DNA from: Apostichopus japonicus
Taxonomy: Eukaryota > Echinodermata > Holothuroidea > Aspidochirotida > Stichopodidae
Direction of reading: 5' to 3'
NCBI RefSeq assembly: GCF_037975245.1
Contig: NC_092569.1
Coordinates: 36,002,168-36,066,167, forward strand
DNA length: 64,000 bases
Shown here piece by piece: positions 31,698 through 63,132 of the stretch; position 1 is the first letter of the stretch, and each line of letters begins with the position of its first letter. The notes under the pieces are model-generated. The model did not search any database and was not told the origin of the DNA. It saw only the letters and a list, made by a program, of their open reading frames with translations. Both the position numbers and the translations under genes were made by a program.

Positions 31698-34600
31698 ATG
31701 CCGTTGTTTTGCCGATTCTACGAGGAAAGATTCCCTGAGATTGAAGATGTCGTCATGGTTAATGTTTCGTCCATCGCTGACATGGGAGCTTATGTTCATT
31801 TATTGGAATACAACAGCATAGAGGGCATGATACTGCTTAGCGAACTGTCCAGACGTCGTATCCGATCCATAAACAAATTAATCCGTGTCGGACGTAATGA
31901 ATGTGTTGTGGTCATCAGAGTAGATAAAGATAAAGGTAAGTTTTCTAATTTTGTGAAAGCTTATTAGCCATGTTTATGAAGGCTATGTAACAATAAAGCT
32001 ACTACATACAAAGACACAATTTAAGATAACAAAGACCCTTGCCTAATAACCAAACAATGATTCAATACTTACGTAGGACACTCCAAGATACTTACAAGTT
32101 TGATATTTGGTCTAGTTTTTCCCAAGGGTTAGAAAGTCAACATCAGCTCATTTGAAACCCTAACCATATGATGATCTTCGATGAACATCAGCTTATACCA
32201 ATCCCCCCTTTTGATGAGTCTTCAAGGCATGTGTGTAATTATTGCTCCCATTCCTGCTCCCAGGAGCGCCAGTTTACATCCCCATCCACTGGACGAGAGT
32301 GTACCAGCAATTCTGAATGGGTAAAGAACGTGGTGATTTAAAGTATATTAACTATGAATGAAGACACACTTTAATTTGAATAATTCGTCACCGTGTTGCA
32401 TTCACATTAGCAGGTTGAGTTCCAAGCAAAGCAGATGAATGTGTTCTCCTACTTGACTATTAAGTTACAAGTGCATAATTACACCCAAGTAAGGACACGA
32501 CAAAGAGAATATGGTTTCTGGGGAGGATTGAACCCAGAATGTAATAATTGTGGGACGGACACTTTAACTGCTACAACACCTGCACCTTCTTTTTTATCTT
32601 TGCCTCGCTGCAAAATTTGGTTTTGACAACAATTTACTGTCATTCTTTCTGTCCGTTGTGTACATTTTTATAAGTTTGCGCAATACAGCATTTGATTTGC
32701 TTAAAAAATCCCTTACCCTAGTTCAACCATGGAGGTAAAAACAGACCTCCATGGTTCAACTGAAGACCTGGTTAATATTTGAATGAACTCTAACCCATGA
32801 ACAAATTCTCAACAGTATGAATCTGACAATATTTATCAGTCTCCTTAATACAGAACATTTACAAGTTAAGTAATGTTTGGTATGCCTTCATCTAGATATA
32901 TATAACATGATCAAATGTTTCCCCCTATTTGTCAATGTTCTTCATGTGAACTTTGACATTATTCTCATCTTTCCAATTCCCAATTGTCCATTCCTGTTAT
33001 ATTTATGAGTAATTTAACTTATTTAATTGAAATTAACTTTATTCTATTATATGACTCATTAATTTTTCAAAATAAAGCACCCGTAGAGCTATAAGTTATT
33101 GGTTATCTTTCCTGCAAGGTTATCTACTGTACATACAGTAGCACAGTCGATCAGTGAAGTAAATAATTATGTAATTAGGACTGAGCTCGTTACTGTAATT
33201 AAAGTGGTTGCCAGTATTCAGAAGCGAGATTTCAATTTATTTCTACAGGTTACATTGATTTGTCCAAGAGGAGAGTCTCAACAGAAGAAATTGCCAAATG
33301 TGAAGAAAAATTTGCAAAGGCTAAAGCTGTGAGTAGCTAGAACTAAGATTAAACATGAAATAATGATGATAATAATAAGGTCCACCCAGAAGGCAGTTAC
33401 TTAACTTACTTCACAATGCTAAGCAGTTACATGTGCATATTGGAGAAGCTGAATGGTTTATAACTCAAGGTTGGGTGGCTATCCAGATTTACAGTCTTAG
33501 CTCAAATTTAGTCAATTTTTTTTTATACAATTAACTACCCAATTTCAGATGCAAAAATTGGGAACTTCTCCTGAATGAAAACGTCATTTTAATTAACAGG
33601 CCAGGGCTGGAATCCACAGGTTTCATTGGTTCTAATGCGCCATAGTCTTCATCCACTTGACCACAGCAAAGAACCTTAACAATGACAGTAGCTTAAATAA
33701 ATGGTCTTACCTATGTCTTACAGGTCCACTAAGTTTAAGCAATGCATTACTTGCCAGTTTTTACTACCAAGGGTATATGGATTACTTTCCATTAAATTGT
33801 TTTTATGTATGTCACTTTCATCTTCATCAAATGCTAATGAAATGCATAAAATGCTAATTTTCCATATGATGCTCTGGAGATGAACATTGAGGCTCAAATT
33901 GTGTGTCTTCTATACTGGTCAATCACTGTAATCCTTCCCCTTACAACAACAAAAAAAGAAGACACAATTTGCAATGAAAGCGCCTAGTATTGTATTGCTC
34001 ACAACTTAGCACCTACAATGTGATAAAAAGGGTTCAGTGCAAATAACACAAGTAATGGATTTTCCAGAAGAGAATTTGCACATTCTTTTCTTTTCAGTCT
34101 TAACTCTTATTACAGCCTGATTTTTTAGCCACATATGACCTCCGCAGCTTGACAGTTTGGTTAAAATTGGCTAAATTTTCAATTCATGGTCTCCTCAGGT
34201 TAACAGTATCCTGAGGCACGTAGGAGAGCTGCTGGGATATGAATCAGATGAACAGCTAGAAGAACTCTATCAAAAAACGGCCTGGTACTTTGATAGGAAA
34301 AATGGTCGCCCTGGCTATGGGGCATATGAAGCATTCAAACTGTGTGTACAGTAAGTCAAAATGATACTTAAGTAGGGCAGGGGAGTGAACTGTACCAGCT
34401 GTGTGTGCCCAACTGGAAACGTTGTGACATCAAACATAGCTATAATAATGGAACCTCAATCCAAGCACGGCCACAGTAGACTGACATTGTATGTGTGCTT
34501 CACAAAGTAGGACTGGTCAAGATTTAGGGAGGTACAAGTGGTGTTTTCAGTATAACTGTCTTGTTTCCACAAATGTAACCAATCACAACAAAACAGTTTT

Positions 34601-60900: not shown

Positions 60901-63132
60901 AAGGGATCAATGACTCACCAGGAACACCACCAAAGTATAAGGGATTAATGACTCACCAGGAACACCACCAAAGTATAATGGATCATTGGTGTTGGTTTCA
61001 GTCTGTGCTGGATTATCGCTGACCCCTAGTATGCCTTCCTCACCGTCCACTGTTATAGAGGCTTCAAAACGATCTTTGACCACTGCAAAAGAACAGTGAT
61101 GACAAAGATGGCCCTTTGTGTTACACTTTTAAAGTCACAAATTTGAAATTTTTTTATGCTTGTTTCTTCTGTCAATACTTCATATGTAATATTATTTATT
61201 ATATTCTGTATTGGTATAGCATCATCGCATGGTGGTGCTAATGGTATAGCATGGTGGTGCTAATATAATGGTATAGCATGGTGAAGCTAATATAATGGTA
61301 TAGCATGATGAAGCTAATGTAATGGTATAGCATGGTGAGGCTATTGTAATGGTTTAGCATGGTGAAGCCAATATAATGGTATAGCATGGTGAAGCTAATA
61401 TAATGGTATAGCATGGTGAAGCTAATATAATGGTACAGCATGGTGAAGCTAATGTAATGGTATAGCATGGTGAAGCTAATATAATGGCATAGCATGGTGA
61501 AGCTAATGTAATGGTATAGTATGGTGAAGCTAATGTAATGGTATAGCATGGTGTAACTACTGTGCTCATAACTAGCTATTAAAAGTCAGTGGGCTTTGAC
61601 AAACAACAGCAAAATGGAATCTGCTATGCTATGCCACCACCAAACAAAGCTAGTGAAATTAAGGGTAGTTACAAAATATGTTAATGCTATATCACTGCAA
61701 AAACAGCTTGTAAAATTTATAATAAAGCTACAAAATACTTGATGCTATGCCATAACACAGCAATATATGTATGTTCTATGTAATTGATCAAACAAAGCTA
61801 GAGAGATTAAACAAAAATCTACAACTTACTGTAAATAGTTATAACTTTGGCCAAAGTTGAGCTAGTGAAATTTAGCATATAGCTACGAGGTATCTACTAT
61901 GCTATGTTGCTGGCCATAGCTGAGCTAGACAAATATAGCATATAGCTACAAAACACCTTGTATGCTATGAATTTAGCATACAGCTATGAAATATCTTCTA
62001 TGGTATGTCACTGGTCAAAGCTGAGCTAGTCAAATATAGCATATAGCTACAAAATACCTTGTATGCTATGAATTTAGCATACAGCTATGAATTATCTTCT
62101 ATGCTATGTCGCTAGCCATAGCTGAGCAAGACAAATATAGCATATAGTTACAAAATACCTTGTATGCTATGAATTTAGCATACAGCTATGAAATATCTTC
62201 TATGGTATGTCACTGGCCATAGCTGAGCTAGTCAAATATAGCATACAGCTACAAAATACCTTGTATGCTATGAATTTAGCATACAGCTATGATAGATCTT
62301 CTATGGTATGTCACTGGTCAAAGCTGAGCTAGTCAAATATAGCATATAGCTACAAAATACCTTGTATGCTATGAATTTAGCATGCCGCTATGAATTATCT
62401 TCTATGCTATGTCGCTAGCCATAGCTGAGCTATACATATATAGCCTATAGCTGTAAGGTACCTCATATAGTATGCTTGTGTCTATACACAATCTACTGGT
62501 CTTTCACATACCTTCTATGCTATGCCATTGGCCATTGCACAAGCTGAACTCCCCATTTGGAGGAATGTAAGAGGCCATGAACTCCCCTCCTCCATTCTGT
62601 ACACTCAAGAACAGCTGTCAGAATACAAATAAAATAAATCACGGATGAAACATTTAACAATCCTCATTTTTCATGATCAGTTTGTTCACACAAACGTTTT
62701 TATCAAGTGCTTCCCTACTGCATCCAACTTTTTTGTCTCTTACTTCAATTTGGTGGATGTAGTTAACCATCAAGGGCCAATGAAATGGCTTCAACAAAAA
62801 TCTTTCCAATTCCCAAATTTCCATTGTTACATTCAAAACGGTTCAAGTAAAGTCTGTTCCACAACAATATATTCTAATGGTGTACATAATTATCACATCA
62901 CAAACACTTTCAGACTATTTTTAAATAGCTGGATGGATGGGGAGGGGAACATTGAGAGTCATGAGTGGGGGACTACAAGTGTTGAAGAACCAGATGGCTA
63001 CCTGTCCGTCTCTTAATTCCAAGGCCAAAAAGTCCATGTTTGGTTTCTGGATGGAGAAGATGGTTCCACTGCTCTTCCTGGGCTTGATGTCAAAGGTCAT
63101 TGTCAACTCGATACCAACAGAGAATTCATCGC
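57954..63132 (-). CDS. Laminin alpha chain, C-terminal LG5 domain (partial, 3' exons)
   Basis: Four consecutive minus-strand exons: 63002-63132, 62512-62614, 60957-61082 and 57954-58096 (stop TGA). Borders are GT-AG and phases agree. They encode one laminin G-like domain: FSVGIELTMTFDIKP, DFLALELRDGQ, LFLSVQNGGGEF, LCNGQWHSIE, ASITVDGEE, TNTNDPLYFGGVP, ESFGGCIRNIVINGK and the terminal VDLRSCPAN. The TNDPLYFGGVP block, the FxGCIR Cys and the final SCPAN followed by a stop fit LG5 at the end of a laminin alpha-1/2-type chain. Laminin alpha is the basement-membrane chain whose LG domains bind dystroglycan and heparin. Upstream exons lie beyond the window. The intron after exon 3 is filled by a 38-bp array built from that exon's end and donor. 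Confidence 0.9.
58472..60979 (-). repeat. 38-bp minisatellite made of a laminin exon end plus its splice donor, 66 units
   Basis: In gene sense each unit is 29 nt matching the end of exon 3 (TGATCC, a TTATACTTTGGTGGTG core, TTCCTG) followed by GTGAGTCAT, the first 9 nt of the intron. Unit starts run from 58472 to 60942 with an exact period of 38 (2470 = 65 x 38). The unit at 60942-60979 is the genuine exon-intron junction. Every unit I read keeps GTGAGT. The exon has an A where the other units have C (GATCCATTATAC versus GATCCCTTATAC). Variants recur at multiples of 38, such as 950 bp (25 units) between 59211 and 60161. Confidence 0.97.
61215..61560. repeat. 27-bp minisatellite in the laminin intron
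   Basis: About 12 copies of a unit containing AATGGTATAGCATGGTGAAGC, in the intron between the second and third laminin exons of the window. The period is a multiple of three, so the minus strand reads as an open frame of repeated MLYHYISFT. This is a by-product, not a gene. Confidence 0.93.
61610..62460. repeat. ~101-bp tandem array with diverged copies of the preceding exon's 3' end
   Basis: The motif TGAGCT recurs at 61921, 62022, 62122, 62224, 62325 and 62425, a period of 100-102 bp. Older, more diverged copies continue back to ~61610. Each unit contains a stretch (plus strand CTTCTATGCTATG, then GGCCAT, then AGCTGA) matching the 3' end of the exon at 62512-62614. At the donor position the units read AT instead of GT. 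The remainder is an intronic TTTAGCATACAGCTATGAA sequence. Confidence 0.82.

What the first reader, a model, noticed from the sequence alone, without database searches (positions are those of the whole stretch)
31698..63132. Four splice-junction-derived arrays in two unrelated genes: a genome-wide process?
The eIF2alpha gene has arrays built around the acceptors of introns 4 and 5. The laminin gene has arrays built around the donors of two successive exons. Both the youngest laminin unit and the intron 5 unit include 29 nt of exon. Four arrays in ~32 kb is unlikely to be coincidence. Possible causes are a replication or repair slippage hot spot at splice junctions (for example R-loops at exon edges), transposition of spliceosome-associated sequence, or selection for splice-site decoys. 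It could also be a route to new introns or lengthened exons.
Basis: inference. Interest (0 to 1): 0.9.

Follow-up and report, generated by a model that had tools for sequence, protein, structure and literature searches.

The report
Repeated splice junctions in sea cucumber
In a sea cucumber, short pieces of DNA spanning the borders between coding and non-coding parts of two genes have been copied head to tail up to 66 times, a rarely described oddity known from amphioxus; a small random sample gave no sign that it is unusually common across this genome.

Summary
The window is from the sea cucumber Apostichopus japonicus. Of 33 exon edges defined in three genes, 4 have tandem copies of the exon-intron junction in the adjoining intron: the acceptors of eIF2alpha exons 5 and 6 and the donors of two successive laminin-G exons. 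The intron 5 array has 12 copies, the larger laminin array 66; the other two are diverged. The four units are unrelated and local. Such arrays are known in amphioxus as "mirages"; my paper searches listed none in an echinoderm. Best explanation: ordinary minisatellite growth by slippage or unequal exchange that happened to start across a junction, tolerated because the exon-proximal copy still makes the correct mRNA. The collapsed laminin array shows a 7-nt direct repeat at the 38-nt spacing. Some copies may be used: the public eIF2 subunit 1-like isoform X2 is letter for letter the product of splicing to an upstream array copy (266 aa, truncated), though it is only a gene model. A genome-wide process is not supported: in 30 random 10-kb stretches arrays were common (34 blocks), but at most 1 of 59 candidate exon edges was positive, and that one reads as a near miss. 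The sample is small.

The parts
31698..37577 (+). eIF2alpha gene, 7 coding exons: 31698-31935, 33249-33328, 34199-34350, 35179-35285, 35950-36047, 36851-36994, 37461-37577 (stop included); intact 311-aa product
   Evidence: S1 and EIF_2_alpha Pfam domains on the public protein P0006, which shares exons 1-5
35308..35957 (+). degenerate array (period about 54 bp) around the acceptor of intron 4 / exon 5; covers most of the 664-nt intron; 7 copies above the shuffle threshold; seven YAG|AT acceptor-like sites, one of them (35896) in frame (+18 aa). Left limit approximate
36227..36879 (+). array of 12 copies (spacing 47-63 bp, consensus 57) of the intron 5 acceptor tract plus up to the first 29 nt of exon 6; the last copy is the true exon edge (36851)
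36351..36994 (+). exon as in the public model 'eIF2 subunit 1-like isoform X2': acceptor is an upstream array copy at 36351, stop inside the array
   Evidence: product identical to P0006 (266 aa)
57957..63132 (-). last four exons of a laminin-G gene: 63132-63002, 62614-62512, 61082-60957, 58096-57957
   Evidence: P0121, A. japonicus putative laminin-like protein epi-1, 98%; Laminin_G_2 6.7e-26
58472..60985 (-). array of 66 copies, period exactly 38 bp: 29 nt of exon end plus 9 nt of intron start; all 66 keep the donor GTGAGT; the true donor is the first copy in gene order (exon ends at 60957)
61869..62535 (-). array of about 5.8 copies of a 101-bp unit (TRF 61869-62452) running up to the end of the exon that ends at 62512; each unit has two diverged segments that match this exon end and its donor
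61239..61553 (-). 27-bp array (11.7 copies) in the same laminin intron; no junction copy in the gene orientation was found (a 13-nt inverted match only)
40843..47596 (-). RTN4IP1-like gene, 8 coding exons, used as internal control: none of its 14 edges has copies in the adjacent intron at E<=1e-3

Best explanation
These are 'mirages': minisatellites whose founding unit happened to span an exon-intron junction. Proposed course: (1) a short tandem duplication arises by replication slippage or microhomology-mediated repair, at the laminin donor between two ATCCATT words 38 nt apart, one in the exon and one in the intron (words and spacing shown, timing inferred); (2) the tract lengthens and shortens by unequal exchange or further slippage (inferred) in a genome that carries many arrays (34 blocks in a 300-kb sample, shown); (3) it is tolerated because one splice site, the copy next to the intact exon, still yields the right mRNA, while the other copies become intron (for the intron 5 and 38-bp laminin arrays only that copy codes for the normal protein: shown by translation; its predominant use: inferred); (4) some copies may still be used as alternative sites, giving truncated products and probably mRNA decay (one public gene model matches exactly; abundance unknown). 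No special affinity of the process for splice junctions is needed.
For: 4 of 33 edges positive, 29 blank. Units unrelated to each other and local within the window. 7-nt direct repeat at 38-nt spacing in the collapsed laminin locus, 77 of 20000 shuffles. 12 acceptor copies in intron 5, of which only the exon-proximal one gives 311 aa; the 11 upstream copies give products of 237-302 aa with the stop 134-694 nt before the last junction. Of the 66 laminin donors 1 gives the normal product, 64 stop inside the array and 1 is frame-shifted. P0006 equals the product from the copy at 36351. Published mirages match in kind: amphioxus Adh3 (unit 10-72 bp), globins BflGb6 and BflGb9, PGBD5, troponin C (PMC3087553 and PMC3902484, passages seen). 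Sample: 34 array blocks, 0-1 of 59 candidate edges, about 0.4 expected by chance.
Against: Inside the three gene bodies 4 of 5 arrays hold an edge, where random placement of units predicts 0.26-0.53 (P 4e-4, 1e-4 or 7e-6 by the overlap demanded), before allowing for the choice of the window and for two arrays per gene not being independent. 4 of 33 against 0 of 59 gives Fisher P 0.015, against 1 of 59 P 0.054. Something about this neighbourhood may therefore favour junctions. No seeding repeat was shown for the other three arrays.
Confidence: 0.72

Rival explanations
1. A junction-directed mutational process (for example R-loop or paused-polymerase breaks at exon edges) makes these arrays across the whole genome.
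For: Four arrays in two genes of one 64-kb window; array-level excess within the three genes; unrelated genes and both junction types affected; the phenomenon recurs in several amphioxus genes; window against sample P 0.015 or 0.054.
Against: 0 strict, 1 generous, of 59 candidate edges in 30 stretches of the same assembly, with about 0.4 expected by chance; none of the 14 RTN4IP1-like edges between the two genes; per-position coverage does not peak at edges.
Confidence: 0.12
2. The eIF2alpha arrays are kept as regulated decoy acceptors: splicing to upstream copies makes unproductive mRNA and tunes the amount of eIF2alpha.
For: Public isoform X2 is exactly such a product; the 11 upstream intron 5 copies keep AG (10 CAG, 1 AAG) and 10 of the 11 have 71-82% pyrimidines before it (one 53%), while the true site ends in AAG; each of these 11 products has a stop 134-694 nt before the last junction.
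Against: Only a gene model, no reads seen; the copies resemble the true site simply by descent; no genomic locus of another holothurian was available to test conservation; intron 4 copies are decayed.
Confidence: 0.1
3. Assembly or gene-model artefact: copy numbers (66 in particular) are inflated or collapsed by assembly and the X2 model is spurious.
For: Exact-period arrays of 2.5 kb are hard to assemble; 'X2' names come from automated prediction (recalled, not from a call).
Against: The four arrays differ in period and divergence; 16 unit types are interspersed along the 66-copy array, which a simple assembly stutter would not give; frames and products are intact.
Confidence: 0.05

Closest known systems
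Amphioxus 'mirages' (Adh3, globins BflGb6 and BflGb9, PGBD5, troponin C)
   Same: Minisatellite-like tandem copies of an intron-exon boundary, at 5' or 3' boundaries, many copies keeping AG or GT; proposed as a route to new introns (passages of PMC3087553 and PMC3902484; the original Adh3 paper is not held).
   Different: Echinoderm, not cephalochordate; four arrays in two genes; one array with 66 copies of an identical donor hexamer, against 6 and 3 units in the two BflGb6 haplotypes; a public protein model reads into the array, where the passages say that regular splicing seems undisturbed. Length and somatic instability are reported there and could not be tested here.
Intron gain by tandem genomic duplication (Rogers model, AGGT)
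   Same: Short tandem duplication yields extra splice sites (PMC3443670, passages).
   Different: There the duplicated piece is exonic and makes a new intron; here the duplication lies at an existing junction and no intron gain is shown.
Ordinary intronic minisatellites
   Same: Array and unit size, variant units; arrays are frequent in this genome.
   Different: The unit contains the end or start of a coding exon with its splice site.

Membership tests
Mirage (amphioxus type) | tandem minisatellite-like array | tested here: met
Mirage (amphioxus type) | repeat unit spans a real exon-intron boundary of a working gene | tested here: met
   clear for eIF2alpha exon 6 and the laminin 38-mer; diverged for the laminin 101-mer; weak for intron 4, where most copies match 2-6 nt of exon and three 15-18 nt
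Mirage (amphioxus type) | host gene keeps an intact reading frame through the array-proximal site | tested here: met
   public laminin model P0121 uses the exon-proximal junction
Mirage (amphioxus type) | regular splicing not disturbed in RNA | not testable with these tools
   no RNA data; one public protein model (P0006) suggests some use of an array copy
Mirage (amphioxus type) | length polymorphism or somatic instability | not testable with these tools
   one haplotype only
Intron gain by tandem duplication | a new intron absent from relatives, bounded by the duplicated splice words | not tested
   no orthologous genomic loci available
Introner or other transposed element | related copies at unlinked sites | tested here: not met
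   within the window only: best match between any two of the four units E 0.51, no unit outside its own array; the genome search did not complete

The most novel reading that the evidence does not exclude
In holothurians, minisatellites seeded at splice junctions recur in many genes as a lineage-wide process shared with amphioxus; they lengthen introns, lay out ladders of near-identical competing splice sites, and now and then supply working alternative sites (isoform X2 of eIF2alpha; an in-frame +18-aa acceptor in intron 4), a visible path from duplication to new splice variants and introns.
Probability: 0.13. Interest if true: 0.75.

Novelty: new member of a known kind. Interest (0 to 1): 0.42.

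Why it matters
The arrays are natural experiments on splice-site choice: 66 identical donors or 12 similar acceptors in a row, of which one makes the right mRNA. They extend the mirage phenomenon to an echinoderm, a second phylum as far as my searches show, and include a case where a public isoform matches splicing to an array copy. They may also trip automated annotation: none of the 120 listed hits to eIF2alpha is identical to the window's 311-aa protein, and the hit named A. japonicus is the truncated form.

Tried and rejected
Search for a shared element behind the four arrays: none within the window. Polarity (less exon-like with distance): no significant trend. Per-position enrichment of repeats at edges: absent. 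The 27-bp laminin array as a fifth junction array: only a 13-nt inverted match. In the random sample, arrays beside coiled-coil exons of an SMC6-like gene (L018, gene name recalled; one array ends about 10 nt before the likely acceptor, another about 30 nt before exon 3084), a VHS exon (L026, about 75 nt away) and a possible TM exon (L025, about 50 nt away) do not contain the edge by reading; SRCR repeats in L011 are ordinary domain duplication. Paper searches for the phenomenon in echinoderms or sea cucumbers listed nothing on it; these lists are capped (15 of 4,459; 2 of 2; 20 of 53; 12 of 550; 12 of 16 papers), only the CC-licensed library was searched, and two older papers I asked for are not held.

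Limits of the sample test: exons were found with a codon score trained on four window genes and then Pfam, so short or fast-evolving exons are missed. 50 ORFs were put to Pfam, by choice from 115 listed and 43 near arrays; 32 had a hit at E<=0.01; I dropped two before the count (a reverse transcriptase, L010:756-1556, and a weak FDF hit, L001:9064-9456) and used 30, of which 8 are below the family's curated cut-off. Every AG or GT near the domain ends was tried as an edge, which favours positives; but some of the 59 'edges' may be gene ends rather than splice sites (the GPCR exon in L012, for one), so the true number is lower. The criterion (>=2 spanning hits) would still pass all four window edges. 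The sample block scan used low-complexity filtering, which the window scan did not, so the two array densities are only roughly comparable. Shuffles are simple (2-mer blocks, single letters). P values within the window ignore that it was picked for the pattern.
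Full report
WHAT IT IS FROM. The eIF2alpha reading frame rebuilt from seven exons matches a public Apostichopus japonicus protein at 234 of 235 residues, up to where that protein turns into array sequence (P0006), and the RTN4IP1-like gene matches an A. japonicus protein at 100% over the 353 residues queried (P0122). Both are listed on a 37,464,776-base sequence; contig C9 of the window's assembly has that length. The host is therefore the Japanese sea cucumber, an echinoderm.

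THE ARRAYS. (a) eIF2alpha intron 5: 12 copies, spaced 47-63 bp (consensus 57), of the acceptor tract plus up to the first 29 nt of exon 6; the last copy is the real exon. (b) eIF2alpha intron 4: a ragged array of about 54-bp period around the exon 5 acceptor, covering most of the intron; most copies match only 2-6 nt of exon and three match 15-18 nt. (c) Laminin, exon ending at 60957: 66 copies of exactly 38 bp, 29 nt of exon and 9 nt of intron, all 66 with GTGAGT. (d) Laminin, exon ending at 62512: a 101-bp unit, about 5.8 copies, with two diverged junction-like segments per unit. In each case copies score above the 99% level of shuffled introns: 7, 11, 65 and 11 copies for (b), (a), (c), (d), true edge not counted.

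IS IT MORE THAN CHANCE? Of 33 edges in the three genes (eIF2alpha 12, RTN4IP1-like 14, laminin 7), 4 have copies in the adjacent intron and 29 have none at E<=1e-3. A de novo scan of the gene bodies (the RTN4IP1-like one without its first intron) gives four repeat blocks at E<=1e-3, all touching an edge; a weak extra block appears only at E 0.01 and does not. Placing five units of the observed sizes at random predicts 0.26-0.53 edge-containing arrays, and four or more has P 4e-4, 1e-4 or 7e-6 depending on the overlap demanded. These P values treat arrays as independent and are not corrected for the fact that the window was reported because of the pattern. Against enrichment: counted per position, edges are no richer in repeats than the rest.

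IS IT GENOME-WIDE? I took 30 stretches of 10 kb from 21 contigs of the same assembly. They contain 34 repeat blocks, so tandem arrays are ordinary here; 17 kb of gene body would carry about 1.9 by that density, and four or more has P 0.13, five or more P 0.046. Thirty exons with Pfam hits at E<=0.01 (8 of them below the curated cut-off) gave 59 candidate edges; with every nearby AG or GT allowed as the edge, 1 of 59 was positive. That one, beside a coiled-coil exon in L018 that I take for SMC6 (recognised from memory), is by reading a near miss: the array stops about 10 nt before the likely acceptor, whose phase fits the preceding exon. Chance predicts about 0.4. A rate like the window's is unlikely elsewhere (P 0.0045 for <=1 of 59); the 95% upper bound is 5% for 0 of 59 and 9% for 1 of 59; window against sample gives Fisher P 0.015 (0 of 59) or 0.054 (1 of 59). 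So the window is locally rich and the sample gives no sign of enrichment, but even a 1% rate would mean many such arrays in a genome with 19,828 annotated genes (PMC10344927, passages).

HOW IT AROSE. The four units do not resemble one another (best E 0.51) and none occurs outside its own array in the window, which argues against a mobile source. Collapsing the laminin array to one unit leaves ATCCATT twice, exactly 38 nt apart, once in the exon and once in the intron; 77 of 20000 letter shuffles do as well. This is the footprint expected of slippage or microhomology-mediated duplication, although a partial last unit would look the same. The copies do not get significantly less exon-like with distance, so growth from the exon side is not shown.

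WHAT IT DOES TO THE GENE. By translation, 1 of 66 laminin donors gives the normal product, 64 stop inside the array and 1 is frame-shifted. In eIF2alpha intron 5 the 11 upstream acceptors give products of 237-302 aa with stops 134-694 nt before the last junction, the kind usually removed by NMD (rule recalled); only the last copy gives 311 aa. It ends in AAG, while 10 of the 11 others end in CAG. In intron 4, one of seven acceptor-like sites (35896) would add 18 aa in frame; the other six give 194-237 aa. The public protein 'eukaryotic translation initiation factor 2 subunit 1-like isoform X2 [Apostichopus japonicus]' is identical over its 266 residues to splicing at the third copy, 36351. It is a gene model; whether reads support it could not be seen here. 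None of the 120 listed hits is identical to the full 311 aa. For laminin, a public A. japonicus model on a 221,300-base contig, with a few differing residues, joins the exons at the exon-proximal donor (P0121).

WHAT IS KNOWN. [quoted passage not shown] the original Adh3 paper is not held). New here, as far as I could search, are the host phylum, the copy number of the laminin array and the exact match of a public isoform to an array copy. Searches for echinoderm or sea cucumber cases listed none, in capped lists from a library that lacks most subscription papers.

VERDICT. Real, unusual and worth recording, best filed as mirages in a sea cucumber; a junction-directed genome-wide process is possible but unsupported by the one independent sample I could take.

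Noticed in passing
window 36351-36994 and protein P0006: Public A. japonicus eIF2alpha 'isoform X2' is truncated exactly as if spliced to an array copy; none of the 120 listed hits is identical to the full 311-aa protein.
   Followed up: yes
window 1125-2192, 6908-8002, 11248-12441 (+): Three closely similar single-ORF EamA-family transporter genes; 20-bp repeats related to ATGTCCAAAATAATATAAGC occur at about 4.7, 9.1 and 13.6 kb, downstream of each copy, suggesting a segmental tandem triplication.
   Followed up: partly
window 3229-4407 (+) and 20884-21393 (-): Reverse transcriptase fragment (RVT_1 1e-21) and a Psq/Tc5-type transposase DNA-binding fragment.
   Followed up: no
window 38798-39737: Array of about 18 copies of 53 bp about 1.2 kb past the eIF2alpha stop codon, with a 212-bp higher-order period; its unit matched nothing else in the window.
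   Followed up: partly
window 46086-46159: Rfam tRNA match (32.9 bits) inside an RTN4IP1-like intron; ARAGORN does not report it.
   Followed up: no
window 36156-36227: Pure (AT)36 microsatellite directly abuts the distal end of the intron 5 acceptor array.
   Followed up: no
L018 4020-4500: 59-bp array ending about 10 nt before the likely acceptor of a coiled-coil (SMC6-like) exon on the window's own contig: a near miss of the same kind.
   Followed up: partly
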